In this document: positions 1,421 through 12,184 of the stretch, piece after piece
Layout of the letters: each line of letters starts with the position of its first letter
Position numbering within the stretch: the first letter of the stretch is position 1
Assembly: GCF_000003605.2 (NCBI RefSeq)
Contig: NW_003143808.1
Coordinates: 274,609 to 297,411 of the forward strand
DNA length: 22,803 nt
DNA from: Saccoglossus kowalevskii
Lineage: Eukaryota > Hemichordata > Enteropneusta > Harrimaniidae
Direction: 5' to 3'
Position numbers and translations under genes: made by a program
Notes under the pieces: model-generated
The model's database searches: none
Told to the model about the DNA's origin: nothing
Seen by the model: the letters and a program-made list of their open reading frames with translations, nothing else

Positions 1421-1985
1421 AGCAATGAAGATAATATTTTTATCCTGTCAACGTTAATTGAGAAATATAGAGCCGCTAGAAAGAGATTATACGTTTGTTT
1501 TGTAGACTACAAAAAAACATTTGACTATGTTGACCGAGCTAGTTTATTTTTAAAGCTTGTTAGAGTATGCTTTAGTTGTAAAATAGTCAATCTTTTGCAG
1601 AGTATGTACATCGTGGTTAAATATTGTGTAAAATTACCGCATGGTTACACAAAAACATTTACATCTGAGATTGGGGTACAAAAGGGGGCATATTAAGCCC
1701 AATTTTATTTGCATTTTTTCTAAACGATTTAGAAAGGGATTTGAATAAAGTACCATTTGATGGGGTTGAATTGGATGATTATCCACTAACATGTCTTTTG
1801 TATGCCGACGGCACGGTTATTGTATCTGATAGTGCTTCGGGTTTACAGTTACTTGCCAGATTTCAATTTTATTGTTATACCTGGAAAATGTTTGTAAACA
1901 CCACTAAAACTGAAATTATTATCTTCAATAAGGATATTGTTGACTGTGATGACGATAACTTGGATTTTAAATTATTTGGAAATCA
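1421..1985 (+). pseudogene. LINE reverse transcriptase domain, frameshifted
   Basis: From 1421 the frame reads NIFILSTLIEKYR and then LYVCFVDYKKTFDYVDRASL, the first catalytic motif (usual F.DykkAFD). Motif B follows as GVQKGA then LSP, but one base is missing between them, so a TAA (1694-1696) appears in the first frame and LSP is read in the next one (1696 on). The catalytic box reads YADG (1801-1812) instead of YADD, so the second catalytic aspartate is lost. The downstream VNTTKTEIIIF fits the usual 'vN..Kt.i..f'. A further frame change near 1980 leads into the C-terminal frame. This copy cannot encode an active enzyme. Confidence 0.88.
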
Positions 1986-3037
1986 AAATGGATATTGTTG
2001 TAAATTATACATATCTAGGCGTTGTCTTTGCCGAAAATGGTTCATTTAAGTTGACATGTGCAATTCTGGCCGGAAAAGCTTCAAAGGCAGCGTACGTGGT
2101 CAGTGAAGGAATTGGTAACGAGATTTCACCAAAATTACTTCAAAATATATTTGACTCGAAAATTAAACCAATTTTAAACTATGGAGCTATAGGCTATGGA
2201 GTTATAGGAAATCTATATTGTAAACCAATTGAAGATGTTCAGTTAAAGTGGTGTAAATATATATTATATATATTAGGTATGGGTCAAAATACAACCAACA
2301 ATGCAGTTATGGGTGAACTCGGACAATATCCACTTAGTATTGGCAGAAATATAATCCGTATTAAATTTTGGAAACGTATTCTGAAAATGTCATCTAATCG
2401 ACTCGTTTACAAAGCCTATAGAGAGTCTGAAAAATTGGCACAGATAGGAAAGCCATGTTTTGCTTTAGCTATTAAGAAATTATTAATTAAACACAATATG
2501 CATAATATTTGGGAGAATAGGTTTGCCTCCCAAATTACCGATGAAACAACGTTGTTAATTGGAAAGAAAGAGAGAGATTGTTATTTCAAAAGATGGACAG
2601 ATGCGTTATTTGACGATGTTCGTAGATCCCCAAACAGTAGAAATAAGTTACGAACGTTTCGCCAATTTAAAACAAATATTTTTTATGAGAATTATTTGGA
2701 TATCGTTTGTGTTTCCCTGTACAGACAAGCTTTAACTAAACTCCGGTGCTCTAATCATAAGTTACACATTGAGATCGGAAGATATTATGGAACTCCAGTG
2801 GAAAATAGAACTTGCCAAATATGTATAGATGCTGTTGAAGATGAAACTCATTTTCTGGTAGTTTGTCCAGCGTTCGAAAACCGCTTTTTGGTCGAATTAA
2901 CCGCATTGAACCACAATTCGAGTTTCGTTCGCCTATCAGTAAACTTACATATATTTTTCCTCAGGATAACCATGAAATCATCCAAATTCTTGCAAGATTT
3001 GTATACACAGCTTTTCAGATTGGATATAATTTGTTAG
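1985..3037 (+). pseudogene. LINE ORF2 C-terminal region with CCHC zinc knuckle
   Basis: A long open frame of about 350 codons. It begins with NYTYLGVVFAENGSF, the 'YLG..f...G.f' segment just after the reverse transcriptase domain. It continues with KIKPILNYGAIGYG, VMGELGQYPLSI and FWKRIL, all typical of the thumb and connection region of these LINEs. Near the end, KLRCSNHKLHIEIGRY precedes a zinc knuckle of the form C-x2-C-x8-H-x4-C (CQIC ... DETHFLVVC, about 2812-2868). A stop at 3035-3037 is likely the natural end. That the frame stayed open here but broke upstream suggests a fairly young insertion. Confidence 0.88.
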
Positions 3038-3914: not shown

Positions 3915-3952
3915 TTAATGGGAAATCAATTCATGAATCATCTTGTTTACTA

Positions 3953-4002
3953 CCGGTAACACCTGAGCGGAGCGAAACAACAACTCGGCGCAGTCAACAA
4001 CG
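3953..4002 (+). repeat. Left inverted repeat of the candidate transposon
   Basis: This 50-base segment matches the reverse complement of 8538-8587 at 42 positions, beginning with an identical 15 bases (CCGGTAACACCTGAG). It is GC-richer than its surroundings. Similarity fades inward after CAACG and continues weakly outward to about 3915. Confidence 0.8.
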
Positions 4003-4170
4003 ACGTTTACAGTGGGTGTAAAGTAATAATATTAATGATTGTTTCCCCGATAAGCACCGCGTGATATTTACAGTTGTGACAATGTATGTTTCTGTTTATT
4101 TAAAACTAGTGTTCGATTTCAAATGTTATTGGCGCTAATATTGCCTAGCGTTGTAATTAGCAAAGGATCA

Positions 4171-5293
4171 ATGCAAACCAAAACCCAATCGTAGAAATGC
4201 AGGTGAATCAGCTTGGGTGAGAATATCGTTCTGGCAAACCTGTCAGGGAAGACCTTGTTCTCTCCTAATGAATGACGTCAGTGAAAACGGGGGTGACAAG
4301 TCAAGTGGTTATATTCATGGAGGAGTGGTACAGCGCACTGCCGAAAAGTTTTCCAGGTATAGTGTAAAACGAATTTGGAACCGTTACGTCGAAAATGGTA
4401 CATGTAAAGCAGCAGTACGAGAAACGGTATAGCGAAAGAAGCTCATTGAGAATGACCTCGCCTACTTGGAAAGCCTGAAGACAGACGAACCTTCCATAAC
4501 GTATGAAGAAAATAAAACAACAATTTGAACAGTTTTCACCAACTGCAGTGTCAAAGATGACGATATTGCGCGCAGTGAAGATTGCTTTCACAGGTGGAAA
4601 GTGGACGTACAAGCGATATCTGAGATTCTCATTAACAAATTTACACCATGCATTATCAGTCCATGGCGACTGAAGTTTATAGACGAAAGCGGTTTTAGGG
4701 TTCCCACTGCTGCGAATCCTAATTATGGACATGCTTTGGTGGGATAGCGATGTGTACAATTTGCTCGGTACGACCCCAATCCTAATATTACATTAAACTT
4801 GCTAATATGATTTCATGGGTGACTCAAATTGAAGTCCTTGATTGAACTTCAAATTCGATGCACTTTGCAGACTTCATATGGCAGTGCGTAAAGATAGTTG
4901 ACTGGTACGGTGTACCCGCCCTCCAACCGGGTGACTTTCTAGTGCTCGACAACGCACCAATCCATTACAATGAGATTGCACAAAGACTCAATATGTGGCT
5001 TAATACACAGGGAATAGAAGTCATTTTCACGCCAACCTACTCGCCTGAATTTAACCTAGCTGAATTTTGCTTCGGCAAAGTGAAAAAAACACCCTCACTA
5101 TCTATACTTGCATACCACAACTTGGGCATTGCTATTTATTCCGCTGTGGAAGAGGTGTCCGGTGCAGATGTACTCGGATTTGTTTAAGCAACCGGATATG
5201 TTTTTGTTCAGTGAAACTTTTGTTTGTTTTAGGGGTTCGGCAATTGGGCAATTAGAGTTTTTTCAGTATCTGTGCGATTTATTATGTGTGTAG
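4171..5293 (+). pseudogene. Tc1/IS630-like DDE transposase (DD37E), decayed
   Basis: Pieces of one transposase read in order but in shifting frames. The N-terminal DNA-binding part is at about 4185-4430 (RTAEKFSRYSVKRIWNRY, a helix-turn-helix of the type seen in Tc1/paired-like transposases). The linker is at about 4430-4620. The first catalytic aspartate is in FIDESGFRVP (codon 4682-4684), followed by NPNYGHALVG and a TAG stop. The second aspartate is in LVLDNAPIH (4948-4950). The catalytic glutamate is in SPEFNLAEF (5062-5064). Exactly 37 codons separate the last two, hence DD37E. All three catalytic residues survive, but several frameshifts and stops break the gene. A possible start ATG is at 4171, one base out of frame with the following codons. 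The frame ends near 5293. Confidence 0.85.
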
Positions 5294-6660
5294 ATTTTGT
5301 TATTCCCTGAATTCAATACGTCCTATAATTTCCATCGGTCCATTCTTGAATGTTGTGTTGAATAGTTTCCATGTGTGCAACATTATAAGCAGGGCTGATA
5401 ATAACAAACATTTCGTAGAACATATTTTTATTGTATACACTAATAAAGTACAGCTATAGTTATTTCAGAAACAAACGTTTGCCTGGAAGCCGTTTTTGTA
5501 TGTGATATGTTCACACAGTATGTTGTCAAGAAAACAAATTTGACAAATAAATGATCATGTTAAAACGTCACATTATTAATGAAATGACTGTTTTTGCTAA
5601 ATTCGGCGATTGTTTCCTCAGTGAAAAATGTTATTGATAGTCATCGAGTCGATAATAATGTCCAAAGGTAGCCCATATATAAAACTAAATGTAGCCCAGT
5701 GACAGCAATTATTGATGTCGTTATAATAATACAGAAATTGGATTAACAAAACTGATAGGTCATACCCATTCCATATGAGTGCTGGCATGTGAGAAAGAGG
5801 AGAAAAACTACCCCTGAACATTTTTTTTTTTAAATGAATAAAATAAATGATTTGAAGGAAAAAGTCAATGAAGGCCTATTCTTTGAATTTTAATGGGGCG
5901 CGAGGGTGTTTTAATAAAAAAAAAACATTATTGCCTTCATTTAATTTAGTGTATTGTTTTGGCATTGTGAGTATGAGTTCTAATCTATATCTATATAACT
6001 TCAACACAAAGCAAATTGACAACAGGTTGAACACAGTGAATCATGTACTAAGTATTAATAATTTAAATAATGCGCTGTCCGTACAAAATAGTGGTATGAT
6101 GATACGGGATGATTTCATGTCCGAATTGTTAATGTTCATCTGGTGGTGGTGGTGGTGGTTGTGGTATCGGTAGCGGTGACGGTGGTCTAGCCGGAAGCGG
6201 AGGGGGCTGTGATAGGTATTTTTGATGTTTCGAAACCTTTCACTTAGGTAACCGGGATTCGATTATTCCCCACGTTGGACTCACAAAAACACTCGCAGAA
6301 GCTCAATTCGTGTCACATTCGATTCTCTGACTGACTCGTGCTTCCCTTCCCGAGACAGCTTCAAATCACTTTTATTACTTGTCAACCATTAGCCAATTGC
6401 AATAGAGTGTCAGTAACTTTGAGGCGTTGTCTCTAAACAAACAGCCAATCACCAAGTTTTACACATCATAATACAATTGATTAATAGTGTCAACGTCAGT
6501 TTATATTTATGGGCGCTAATGGTCTTGCAATAACATTCCACAGTTGACATCAATTTACATCATTAGTTCTGGACTACGACCAAGGTACCGCATAAGCTTG
6601 AAATCGCAAACTCATGAAAATATGTCGACTGATCTCAACCAGTCCCGTCATCTGGCCTCA
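5294..6660. other. Spacer between the two convergent genes
   Basis: Between the 3' ends of the transposase and the PB1 protein there is about 1.4 kb without coding signal. It is AT-rich to about 6130, has a TGG repeat at 6141-6158, and is more balanced in composition from 6180 on. A 101-codon open frame at 5868-6173 ends in a run of tryptophans from the TGG repeat and is not credible as a gene. Confidence 0.45.
6141..6158. repeat. (TGG)6 microsatellite
   Basis: Six perfect TGG units followed by imperfect ones up to about 6166. It lies in the spacer of the candidate transposon. Confidence 0.9.
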
Positions 6661-8262
6661 TCATTTAACCTTTTCAGTAGATGTCATGGCAACCACCATT
6701 AAGCCGAAATATAAATCATGATAGGACACAGAAGGTTGAACTGTCGGCAATAGTGGCTGCACATATCGTAGCTGTGGTTGAACTTGTAATGGTTGTGGTT
6801 GATCAGGAGATGGCACTGAATGATTATGTAGCGGGTACACTTGGGGGTACTACATGTGTTAGCACATGGATAATAGCCGTACATGTTTGCATTCATACCA
6901 GGCATATAAGGATACGAGTATTGGTAGTACTGGGACCACGGAGAATAGACATTTTGTGGTGATGTCATCGCGGTGGGCATCATATGTGTGGATTGAAACG
7001 AACTACTAAGCTGTAGAACTTGTTGAATTTGTTTTTCTTCCTCATAGCTGGTTTGAGGATAAAGTTCAGAATGAGTACTGCTAATTTTATTCTGATCCTT
7101 TTTTAGTTTTCAGTAAATCATGGTCCAGACAAAAAATGACTAGGTGTTTTTTCAGAGACCTTTAATTTGTATTCTGCGGTATTTTCTAAACGTTCGCGAA
7201 CTCTGTCTTTTGGTTTCACGGATTTGCCATTTTGTAAGTGAACGAGTTCATAATCAGAAATTATACTAGGGAATCCACGATATTCCTGTTTTATTTGCTT
7301 TGGTACTTTGCCGTGATAATGTTCGTTCAAAATTCTGGCATGTTTGTTTATTAACCACTGCTTAGGTGTATCGCCGGTTACTATTGATCAACCAACTTTC
7401 GATTTGCCGCTCGAATGTAGACAAAAACTTATTCTTCGTGTTTATCTTCTGCTGAAGTTCGAGCTCTTTCGTCTTCATATTTTTCGACAGATCGTCACGC
7501 TGTTTACCTAGGCTAATCAATGTAGTTTTCTCCGTGGCATGGTCGGGGTGGTTGATGTCCCCACAAATTTCTGCTGAACAACAGATTTCGTATGGACAAT
7601 TTCGAGAGTATGAAAGTCACTAAGATGACATTTTCCGCAGCGTTTTTTCTTTGAACCTTCGGGTACACATTTGGCATGTTTGTCATTTTGGTCACAGATC
7701 TGGGTTTGAACTGCTGCCAGTTCTACTTTCATATCATTCAATTCTGTTTCTTTCATTTTGATTGCTGGCTCGAGCGGTGATTGGTAAACAAAATGCTCGC
7801 GTTCATCAGGGTCACTTGATTCCTGTTCGTTGTTTTTTTCTCTGTATCATCCAATTTGTCATCACATTCAAACCTCTACCTTTTCGACACGCTAGTTTGC
7901 TCCCTGTAAACATGGGAACTGGCGTTGGGGCTGGTGAACACCCTTCAACGACAGACACCTTTATCCGCCTGTAATCGGCGCCGGCAACTGTCTTTTCACA
8001 GCGAAACAATTCCGCCATGTCCAGTTCATGATTGGAGAGTGTCATCGTGGTCCCTTCCTCATTTTTGTACTGGATCTGAAACTCTGAACATTGTAACTAA
8101 GGAACTTGCTCCTTGATATATTCGATGAACTCAACATGGCTGAACGTTTCCCTGCTGTAAATATGTCTTGATTTATTCCAATAATTTACTTGGATTTGAT
8201 ATACATGGTCAGAATTGAACGTCTCGACCTCGACCTGAAATCTGTTTCGGTTGATTATTGTA
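6661..8262 (-). pseudogene. Decayed intronless PB1-domain protein with coiled-coil, Cys motif and Q/P/Y-rich tail
   Basis: Reading leftward, one protein can be followed through several frames. (1) About 8255-7960: a PB1-like domain with HIYSRETFSHVEFIEYIKEQ, then YKNEEGTTMTLSNHELDMAE, matching the OPCA pattern 'Y.DedGd.v.l.sd.dL' except Asp to Asn; an in-frame TAG (8097-8099) splits it. (2) About 7810-7520: a short helical stretch (MKETELNDMKVELAAVQTQI) and a Cys/His cluster (KKKRCGKCHLSDFHT). (3) About 7545-7390: a charged, coiled-coil-like stretch (KTKELELQQKINTKNKF). (4) About 7370-7118: KQWLINKHARILNEHY, then KIQ-like basic sequence and SDYELVHLQNGKSVKPKDRV. (5) About 7080-6661: a tail rich in Tyr, Pro and Gln (SPDQPQPLQVQPQ), stop at 6661-6663. 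At least four frame changes occur. PB1 domains mediate protein-protein binding. The function of the whole is unknown. The lack of introns fits an element-borne or retrocopied gene. Confidence 0.6.
8097..8099 (-). other. In-frame TAG stop inside the PB1 domain
   Basis: The PB1 reading frame passes through this TAG without any shift: IKEQVP lies before it and LQCSEFQIQY directly after it in the same frame. This is a clear inactivating point mutation. Confidence 0.7.
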
Positions 8263-8299
8263 ATTCACAGGAGGGGCACACGCAACCCCATCAAACACA

Positions 8300-8415
8300 T
8301 TCTATGGTATGGTATGGTAATGAAGCATAAACTATGTTATGCTACAACAGTTTATGTATATAATGCTTCTAATCATTAATTCCTATTTTAGATTTGTAGA
8401 TTTGTAGATTTGACT
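8300..8415. repeat. Short tandem repeats (TATGG and GATTTGTA units)
   Basis: Near 8301-8320 a TATGG-type unit is repeated, and near 8390-8412 the unit GATTTGTA occurs in tandem. Both lie between the start of the PB1 protein and the right inverted repeat. Confidence 0.6.
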
Positions 8416-8537
8416 ACGTGTGCGATTTGTTAGCTGAGACTGAACTGCATTTAACAGCCCCTTTACTTGAAAATGGACTCGCCCGTGACGTCTGGATCAC
8501 GCCCACTCTAACAAATATTCCATCAGTCAAATGCAAA

Positions 8538-8587
8538 CATTGTTGACTGCGCGGAGTGTTCGTTTCTCCCCACTCAGGTGTTACCGG
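8538..8587 (-). repeat. Right inverted repeat of the candidate transposon
   Basis: The reverse complement of this stretch matches 3953-4002 at 42 of 50 positions. Inward of it the sequences differ. Outward, reading right, a CATGAAT match and an AT-rich ATTAAT block suggest the repeat continues to about 8620. Confidence 0.8.
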
Positions 8588-8619
8588 GAGTATTCATGTG
8601 CTGCGTCAGCCATATTAAT

Positions 8620-9200: not shown

Positions 9201-10970
9201 GCATTCAATGTCCATCCCCAGTTTTCTTTTTGAAAACATTAATTTCCTTGCCTGGTTGACTTGGGTACACTCACTTGACCTGTCAAAAATAGTATGATGA
9301 ACCTTTCAATCAGACACACTATTTTTTTGGAATAGACATTTATGTGGGTTTCTGATTCTTTCTGAGGATTCGAAGCTGTTGTCAACATAACAGTCCCATA
9401 TAACATCAACTCGCCTTGTGTTTCCAAGGTTTTCATCAAGTAATGCATCATTTTGGAAGAAGCATGTTGACAATTACAGAGCCATCAAGAATTTTAGCAT
9501 CAACAGTGTATGTAACCAGTTGCAAATCTGAATTCAACCTATTCTCCAAACAGCCCATCAGATCAGACTTTGTACACAAGGTGGACTTCCTTAATTTTTA
9601 TGGCGGAAAAAATCATTCATGTCCCCCTTTCTGGATTGGCAAGTAAATCCTGCTAAATAACTCCAAAGCTGTACCATAATCATGATGTGGATTGGAAGCC
9701 ACCTGGAGTAGTTAATATGGTCCATGGTGCTAGCTGTCCCATACATTGAACATACAATTGGAAGTCTGCCTGATGCAGGGATTGGACAAAATGCATGACC
9801 AGCAGTTCAGGTACTAAAGCCCAGATAACTGAAGAAAGCAAAAGGCAGCTGTTGTAACTTGGTGTACTTAACAAGACCGGGTTACATGTAGTCCTTTCAG
9901 TATAGCATTAGCTCTGCCAGATGTAATAATTTCTGATTGAACAATAACTGTTGACCAGCCACTTCCAGCCAAAAAATCTCAAATTAGTTTCATAGCATTC
10001 ATTTCGATGGTCTATATTATCAACTGTCCCAACAGTAAACAGCTGACCTTTCAATCTAGAAGGGCAGAAACATCCATCACTGTTGAATTGGGCACAAACG
10101 CTAATGACAAGACTTTTGTCAATTTATTTAACTTTTCCATACAAAATACATAGACCACATTTGGACAACTTGTCAATCAGTGCTCTCTGCCTAGTCTTTG
10201 AGTGGGGCATAATGCCAGTGTATATTAAAAGTAGATTCTCCCTAGCTTCATTGTGGCAAAATGCAGATGTTTCCTGGTCGTGATACGTTGTGTTGTACAT
10301 TATTAATACTCTTAGTGATAAACGTTGATGCTCCTGAAGCATGTTTCTGGTTCTGAATACTTGGTCCATGCAAAGTGTCTCTGGAAAAAAAACGTCGAAA
10401 TTGTAATCCATTGCCAATATTCTCAATATTCCTACAGTTGCTGTAAGCGGGTGGTCTCATCATTATCACTGTAAGCGATCTTAATAGATCATAGTTATAC
10501 GTATCGTCCCTGCTGTTGTGCTGCTAAGTCTGGAATGAGGGTTGGTAATTTTTCTTTGAATCTGGTGGTTTTAACTTTTCACACAAATTATGGATCCTGT
10601 TCTCTCAATCTGGACTCGTATACCTTCCTAACTCAGAAAACTTGAAAAATGGTAATCTCTCGTCTTGATGAAATTCATCAAGCTCGGCTAATACAAGGCT
10701 AGCAGATTTACTCCTTTGATTGTTTTTTACATGTTCAGCATTGTATTTCCGGATAAGTTTATTTAATGAAGTCATACAGCTCAGATGGTATCTGGCATCT
10801 AATGTATGCATATCATCTTCTGAGAGTTTCCTGTTCTGCAATACTTGTGCATACTCACAAACTCGAGGGTCATGTTTGGTAGTCAGAGCATTGAGAAGTT
10901 TATCTTTTGTATCATCACAACAAAAATCAACCTTGCCATTGAAGCACTGCTCTGTCTGGTCTTAACAGGA
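9200..10970 (-). pseudogene. Frameshifted copy of an uncharacterised multi-copy invertebrate protein
   Basis: Reading leftward, conserved-looking blocks appear in order. Near 10965-10605: KLLNALTTKHDPRV, then LSEDDMHTLDARYHLSCMTS and FFKFSELGRY. Near 10575-10500: VKTTRFKEKLPTLIPDLAAQ. Near 10426-10124: MPHSKTRQRALIDKLSKCGL. Near 10105-10010: GQLFTVGTVDNIDHRN. Near 9975-9880: SGWSTVIVQSEIITSGRANA. Near 9830-9740: LVMHFVQSLHQADFQLYVQ. Near 9725-9600: INYSRWLPIHIM. Near 9550-9470: LVTYTVDAKILDGSVI. I recall the same order (LDARYH, DN.DHNPSS, YARWLPVH, L.LDT) in many unannotated mollusc and cnidarian proteins, often in many copies per genome. At least six frame changes show that this copy is dead. 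No catalytic motif is recognised. A mobile-element origin is plausible but unproven. Confidence 0.65.
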
Positions 10971-12082: not shown

Positions 12083-12108
12083 TAGAGACGAGACGAGATT
12101 CCCCCCTG
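12083..12108 (+). repeat. 26-base direct repeat, copy left of the assembly gap
   Basis: This stretch is identical to 12159-12184. The two copies directly abut the N run on either side, so they look like the overlapping ends of two contigs that were not merged. Confidence 0.9.
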
Positions 12109-12158: not shown

Positions 12159-12184
12159 TAGAGACGAGACGAGATTCCCCCCTG
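12159..12184 (+). repeat. 26-base direct repeat, copy right of the assembly gap
   Basis: Identical to 12083-12108. After it the sequence continues uniquely (ACAAGTGTGGAG), and a partly similar CCCCCTGACA recurs near 12208. Confidence 0.9.

What the first reader, a model, noticed from the sequence alone, without database searches (positions are those of the whole stretch)
3915..8600. Possible new two-gene DNA transposon: DD37E transposase plus convergent PB1-domain protein
Inverted 50-base repeats (42/50 identical) bracket 4.6 kb. Each of the two enclosed genes starts a few hundred bases inside one repeat and reads inward. Tc1/IS630-type elements normally carry only a transposase. An accessory protein with a PB1 interaction domain, a Cys/His motif and a Q/P/Y-rich tail would be a new arrangement, perhaps for oligomerisation or host-factor recruitment. 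The repeats are seen; the joint mobility is inferred.
Basis: partly seen in the sequence, partly recalled or inferred. Interest (0 to 1): 0.78.

Follow-up and report, generated by a model that had tools for sequence, protein, structure and literature searches.

The report
Decayed two-gene Tc1-like DNA transposon
This stretch is a broken, ancient copy of a jumping gene that carried two genes between its ends, a cutting enzyme and a second protein of unknown role, where relatives of this kind in animals usually carry only one.

Summary
The inverted repeats are real and the bracketed 4.6 kb moved as a unit. True ends are 3948 and 8592 (TA...TA, 45/53). The host assembly (species not named by any tool) has 36 other places with this end; 30 start within two bases of 3948. 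Other copies link both genes: C2925 keeps left end, a second-gene piece and right end; C3324 carries transposase plus spacer; C1343 and C3354 carry spacer, second gene and right side. The left gene is a DD37E transposase. The second protein resembles PB1 only weakly (best Pfam E 8e-4, below cut-off), with a Cys/His motif and P/Q/Y-rich tail. Both genes are broken. A common 0.52-kb repeat is nested at 6207-6723. A divergent second-gene relative lies between the ends of another DD37E family (C2916), but a search found none in that family's other copies, one of them a 1.95-kb transposase copy. So the two-gene arrangement is supported; an accessory role is inferred. New variant of a known kind. 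In passing: related DD37E transposases end in a histone-type 3' stem-loop (Rfam RF00032 over cut-off at 4 loci), not found in the window copy.

The parts
3948..4000 (+). left terminal inverted repeat, beginning with the TA target dinucleotide (TA|CTACCGGTAACACC)
   Evidence: 45/53 with right arm; 30 of 36 other genome places start within 2 bases of 3948; TA at the extrapolated end in 26 of 30 loci (the window and C1297 are each in twice)
8540..8592 (-). right terminal inverted repeat, ending with TA
   Evidence: (C3473:283148-283200)
4224..5187 (+). transposase pseudogene (N-terminal HTH-like part by alignment to C3770, plus DDE_3), several frames; first catalytic D in 4667-4744, second D and E in 4858-5187 (DD37E)
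   Evidence: 45% identical over aa 218-343 to the 343-aa ORF at C3770
6132..8234 (-). second gene, pseudogene: PB1-like region (8198-8016), coiled-coil-like part (by eye), Cys/His motif (7651-7539), middle part, Q/P/Y-rich tail, poly-P end (6206-6132)
   Evidence: piece coordinates; PB1, sub-threshold; homologues at C2393, C1343, C2925, C3354, C2916
6207..6723 (.). nested unrelated high-copy repeat inserted into the end of the second gene
   Evidence: dozens of places matching only this stretch; absent from the C1343 copy
5188..6131 (.). spacer between the convergent genes; parts shared by copies C3324 (5258-5826), C1343 (5591-5987) and C3354 (5503-5612)
8235..8539 (.). right subterminal region, parts of which are kept in the deletion derivatives C2925 and C1297

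Best explanation
The stretch 3948-8592 is an old, inactivated copy of a two-gene cut-and-paste DNA transposon of the IS630-Tc1-mariner group (DD37E transposase, TA target). Shown: two convergent genes between one pair of TIRs, with other copies and deletion derivatives in the same genome that join the parts. Inferred from the families: the transposase binds the TIRs through its paired-like part and excises and inserts at TA. Inferred and less certain (about 0.45): the second protein is an accessory factor that links transposase, DNA or host proteins through its PB1-like part, Cys/His motif and P/Q/Y-rich tail, comparable in role, not in descent, to the Myb-like protein of Harbinger. The confidence below is for the two-gene mobile unit.
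For: TIR far above chance with sharp ends at 30 of 36 other places. Left end + second-gene fragment + right end in one 594-bp derivative at C2925. Left end + transposase C-terminus + right subterminal region in a 1073-bp element at C1297. Transposase + spacer at C3324 and spacer + second gene + right side at C1343, overlapping at window 5591-5826. Spacer + tail of second gene + right side at C3354. Second gene + right TIR at C2393. Second-protein relative at C2916 (27/56 aa) with nucleotide identity 0.59/0.68/0.25 by codon position, as expected of selection for protein; the transposase shows 0.58/0.66/0.28 against C3770. In C2916 it lies between TIRs (29/30) beside a transposase N-terminus, in the same convergent layout.
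Against: No second full-length copy and no intact copy was found. Within the family (window, C2393, C1343) changes are even over codon positions, so no selection on the second gene is visible there. In the family of C2916 the second gene is found in that copy only, truncated at both ends; C2503 (1954 bp), C4320 and C2264, read in full, lack it. About 8.5 kb around each of the C3770 and C1343:8k transposases shows no second-gene match. C1297 joins the transposase end directly to the right end and could come from a shorter single-gene form. No TIR was detected at C3354, and C1343 keeps only an inner part of one. PB1 is below Pfam's cut-off, and a PDB profile search gave no PB1 domain.
Confidence: 0.78

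Rival explanations
1. The second gene is a passenger: a host or foreign gene captured once by a single-gene Tc1-like element, mobilised with it but not needed for transposition.
For: Two related TIR-bounded copies, C2503 and C4320, have no second gene, and second-protein searches match at few places (3, 2, 2, the query's own place included in each); C1297 fits a short single-gene form; even codon-position changes within the family; capture of a PB1 domain by a transposon is on record for MULE-derived MUGB genes (passage in PMC8616336).
Against: A 46-48% identical relative lies inside a different DD37E family with its protein apparently preserved by selection; no place outside these elements was among the matches.
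Confidence: 0.35
2. C2916 is a recombinant: a fragment of a second-gene lineage dropped into a single-gene element, so the association with DD37E elements is peculiar to the window family.
For: The second-gene piece is unique to C2916 among the matches and is cut at both ends.
Against: It is only about 46% identical in protein to the window family, so the donor was not a copy found here; orientation matches the two-gene layout.
Confidence: 0.3
3. Chance bracketing: two unrelated neighbours enclosed by two separate MITE-like insertions of one short repeat family.
For: The repeat does occur in short elements.
Against: Interior segments recur joined to these ends in C2925, C1297 and C2393, and the spacer links to each gene in other copies.
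Confidence: 0.03

Closest known systems
DD37E Tc1/mariner families of animals (Mosquito/MS, TRT, L18; abstract and passages of PMC10379824)
   Same: TIRs, TA target, paired-like plus DDE transposase of about 340 aa, DD37E
   Different: MS is given as about 1.3 kb with one ORF, most 1.3-1.8 kb; variants over 4 kb are mentioned there, but their content is not described in the passages seen; no second gene described in those passages
DD37E(L31) / Mariner-31_CGi of oyster (mentioned in PMC7325037; original paper not seen)
   Same: DD37E, animal host, outside the main Tc1 and mariner clades
   Different: placement not testable here (no reference sequence); whether L31 carries a second ORF could not be read
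Multi-ORF ITm elements of ciliates: Tec, TBE, Paramecium elements (passages of PMC7325037, and PMC5405496)
   Same: IS630-Tc1-mariner transposase with further ORFs; TBE has a zinc-finger protein; one Tec ORF lies on the complement
   Different: Tec/TBE are DD34E and restricted to ciliates; extra ORFs named there are a recombinase, a zinc-finger protein or unknown
Harbinger / ISL2EU two-gene transposons (passages of PMC9179366)
   Same: DDE transposase plus a second protein; Harbinger's Myb-like protein binds TIRs and is imported with the transposase
   Different: different transposase superfamily and unrelated second proteins (Myb-like, YqaJ)
MUGB MULE-derived genes with PB1 (passage of PMC8616336)
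   Same: PB1 domain gained by a DNA-transposon lineage, there thought to be by transduplication
   Different: Mutator superfamily; PB1 is an additional exon of a domesticated gene, not a separate convergent gene

Membership tests
IS630-Tc1-mariner transposon | terminal inverted repeats with TA at both ends | tested here: met
   TA at 3948-3949 and 8591-8592
IS630-Tc1-mariner transposon | DDE_3-type transposase with HTH/paired DNA-binding part | tested here: met
   DDE_3 E 2.4e-13 on the window fragment; relative at C3770 DDE_3 E 4.1e-20 and PAX E 5.9e-4, the latter below cut-off (20.2 against 22 bits)
IS630-Tc1-mariner transposon | single transposase ORF (usual, not strict) | tested here: not met
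   second convergent gene within the same TIRs
DD37E families (MS, TRT, L18, L31) | 37 residues between second D and E | tested here: met
   37 in window and in C3770
DD37E families (MS, TRT, L18, L31) | grouping with the named family in a DDE-domain tree | not testable with these tools
   no reference sequences held; only a small tree of 7 of this genome's own copies was made
PB1-domain protein | match above Pfam gathering score to PF00564 | tested here: not met
   best E 8.3e-4 of 4 homologues, 3 of 4 hit; window 18.6 bits against cut-off 23.6
PB1-domain protein | ubiquitin-like fold with OPCA acidic motif and/or basic Lys (recalled) | not testable with these tools
   structure prediction switched off; an NEEG stretch is kept in both families, but a motif call would rest on recall
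Harbinger-like two-gene transposon | Harbinger-type transposase with 3-bp target (recalled) | tested here: not met
   DDE_3 transposase and TA ends

The most novel reading that the evidence does not exclude
An animal Tc1-like lineage evolved an obligate second transposition protein (PB1-like, Cys/His, low-complexity tail) encoded convergently from the opposite end. It lies within a DD37E clade several of whose other transposases end their mRNAs with a histone-type stem-loop; the two-gene lineage lost that signal, so the two lineages would control transposase supply in different ways.
Probability: 0.25. Interest if true: 0.78.

Novelty: new variant of a known kind. Interest (0 to 1): 0.56.

Why it matters
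Tc1/mariner elements are the model of self-sufficient, one-protein transposons. A two-protein version in an animal would offer a natural test of what a partner protein adds (assembly, import, control, host recruitment) and would parallel Harbinger in an unrelated superfamily. The histone-type 3' ends seen in related transposases would tie transposase mRNA to S phase, which is directly testable.

Tried and rejected
Chance bracketing was rejected from junctions in other copies. An intact or second full-length copy was looked for with the TIR, both proteins and three DNA stretches (these searches score only the best candidates) and none was found. C3770/C1343:8k transposases (343-aa ORF at C3770) were first taken as possible intact members, but their DNA shows only a 50-base match (C3770) or none to this family and none to its ends. 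C2916 was first read as clean proof of an older two-gene element; after one search showed sister copies without the second gene, it was downgraded. An empty insertion site was sought within the window only: none. The direct repeat 3915/11283 is flank, not part of the element. Two viral-contig scans gave no relatives. PDB searches with the second protein gave only non-significant hits, mostly PD-L1. A protein search with the middle part of the second protein was asked twice, not answered, and not completed.
Full report
OBSERVATION. The window is C3473:274609-297411 of a 572-Mb assembly in 4830 contigs; no tool named the species. An inverted repeat joins 3948-4000 and 8540-8592 (53 nt, 45/53). 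Against 200 dinucleotide shuffles of a 6-kb stretch it scores 60.8 bits; the shuffle maximum is 34.6. Searching the genome with 3915-4020 gives 38 matches. Leaving out the query itself and the window's own right end, 30 of 36 start within two bases of 3948 (the two ends of C1297 count as two). The extrapolated end reads TA in 26 of the 30 loci inspected (the window and C1297 are each in twice). So the element is 3948-8592; 3915-3947 is flank.

CONTENT. [quoted passage not shown] Pfam DDE_3 E 2.4e-13. On the minus strand, 8234 to 6132, lies a second broken gene: a PB1-like region, a coiled-coil-like part (by eye), a Cys/His motif, a middle part without Pfam match and a Q/P/Y-rich tail ending in poly-proline. 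PB1 is hit by 3 of 4 homologues but stays under the cut-off wherever a score was printed (best E 8.3e-4); the Cys/His part of C2916 hits PHD_4 at E 9e-6, also below cut-off. Stretch 6207-6723 is an unrelated repeat found at dozens of places (40 of 166 candidates scored) and missing from the C1343 copy.

OTHER COPIES OF THE FAMILY. Window coordinates are used. C2393: 7488-8592, second gene plus right TIR, 81%. C1343:318k: 5591-5987, 6724-6764, 7666-8505, then an inner part of the TIR. C3324: 4445-4616, 4750-5754, 5788-5826, transposase plus spacer, no TIR found. C2595: about 4009-4616 and 4750-4802, no right end found in the 4 kb read. C3324 and C2595 share the lack of 4617-4749, which holds the first catalytic D. 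C3354: 5503-5612, 6796-7425, small pieces, 8439-8527; no TIR detected. C2925: a 594-bp element with left end 1-208, second-gene piece 7494-7585, 8434-8545 and right TIR. C1297: a 1073-bp element with left end, a 417-bp filler also found at C4507, transposase C-terminus 5100-5285 and the right subterminal region. C3324 and C1343 overlap at 5591-5826, so outside the window the spacer is joined to the transposase in one copy and to the second gene in another. With C2925 this supports one mobile unit with both genes. Of 27 distinct other loci among the first 30 fetched, 8 have an inverted partner within the 1.5 kb held.

STATE. Every copy inspected is broken. Between window, C2393 and C1343, differences are even over codon positions: these are decayed copies, and selection on the second gene cannot be seen within the family.

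A SECOND FAMILY. C2916 (L067 4658-5872) has 30-bp TIRs (29/30) with TA ends, a transposase N-terminus (two frames) reading in from the left and part of a second-gene relative reading in from the right. The second-protein piece matches the window at 27 of 56 residues, with nucleotide identity 0.59/0.68/0.25 at codon positions 1/2/3; the transposase of the window against C3770 gives 0.58/0.66/0.28. Both proteins thus look conserved during divergence. Against the reading of an old two-gene state: a search with this element (13 candidates scored) finds 9 further contigs with parts of its left side and C2950 with its right end, but none with the second-gene piece. C2503 is a 1954-bp TIR-bounded copy with a near-complete broken transposase and no second gene; C4320 and C2264 also lack it. 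The piece in C2916 is cut at both ends. C2916 may be a deletion product of a two-gene element or a recombinant.

MECHANISM. Shown: anatomy and joined parts in several copies. From family knowledge: TIR binding, TA target, cut and paste. Inferred: the second protein assists. By analogy, Harbinger's Myb-like partner binds TIRs and is imported with the transposase (passage in PMC9179366). Whether PB1 would act by self-association or by recruiting a partner cannot be told.

KNOWN RELATIVES. Abstract and passages of PMC10379824 describe Tc1/mariner as a rule with one ORF and MS at about 1.3 kb, with some variants over 4 kb. Passages of PMC7325037 and PMC5405496 report multi-ORF ITm elements in ciliates, and PMC7325037 names DD37E(L31) from oyster. 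A passage of PMC8616336 reports PB1 capture in MULE-derived genes. Passages of PMC10294476 on bivalve transposons had no DD37E or L31. In ten literature searches I saw no listing of a PB1-bearing Tc1-like element, but the library is partial and the L31 papers did not appear in it.

IN PASSING: HISTONE-TYPE 3' ENDS. Rfam RF00032 (histone 3' UTR stem-loop) lies on the coding strand about 25-55 nt past the transposase stop (seven loci; at C366 the stop is unclear): above cut-off at C3770 (40.8 bits), C1343:8.5k (40.8), C13 (39.6) and C1007 (35.8); below cut-off at C4320 (29.4), C2340 (28.4), C2503 (23.8, E 0.029) and C366 (21.8, E 0.16, two broken pairs). Of 29 distinct sources scanned, the other 21 gave none; some of these were scanned at the gathering threshold only, and not all contain a transposase 3' end. 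The window has none. AAAGAGA follows in 6 of the 8, as expected of a U7 site (recalled). The genome search scored 75 of 50,532 first-look candidates: 73 matches, 65 over cut-off, 3 of them at these transposase loci; the rest were not examined, and the C1007 hit is not in that list, so it is incomplete. A rough chance expectation, taking 75 stem-loops and 26 loci, is 0.0002; with more stem-loops it would rise in proportion. No paper listing seen links such a stem-loop to a transposon.

Noticed in passing
L057 6137-6092 (-), L058 2501-2546, L048 1845-1890, L035 1330-1285 (-); weaker in L080, L046, L038, L037: Histone 3' UTR stem-loop (RF00032) shortly after the stop of several related DD37E/DD38E transposase genes, with AAAGAGA downstream in 6 of 8: possible histone-type, S-phase-linked 3' ends of transposase mRNAs. 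Not found in the window element.
   Followed up: partly
window 6207-6723: High-copy repeat of about 0.52 kb nested in the second gene; dozens of places in the genome.
   Followed up: partly
window 1421-3034 (+): Remains of a reverse transcriptase (RVT_1 E 8.6e-9 on 1669-2046, 0.048 on 1421-1693).
   Followed up: partly
C3324 and C2595 (window 4617-4749 missing in both): Two transposase copies share the same 133-bp loss covering the first catalytic Asp, suggesting a non-autonomous lineage that was copied after the loss.
   Followed up: no
window 12083-12108 and 12159-12184: Perfect 26-bp direct repeat, 76 bases start to start.
   Followed up: no
window 10608-10961 (-): Open frame of 118 codons with several Cys residues; no Pfam match.
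   Followed up: no
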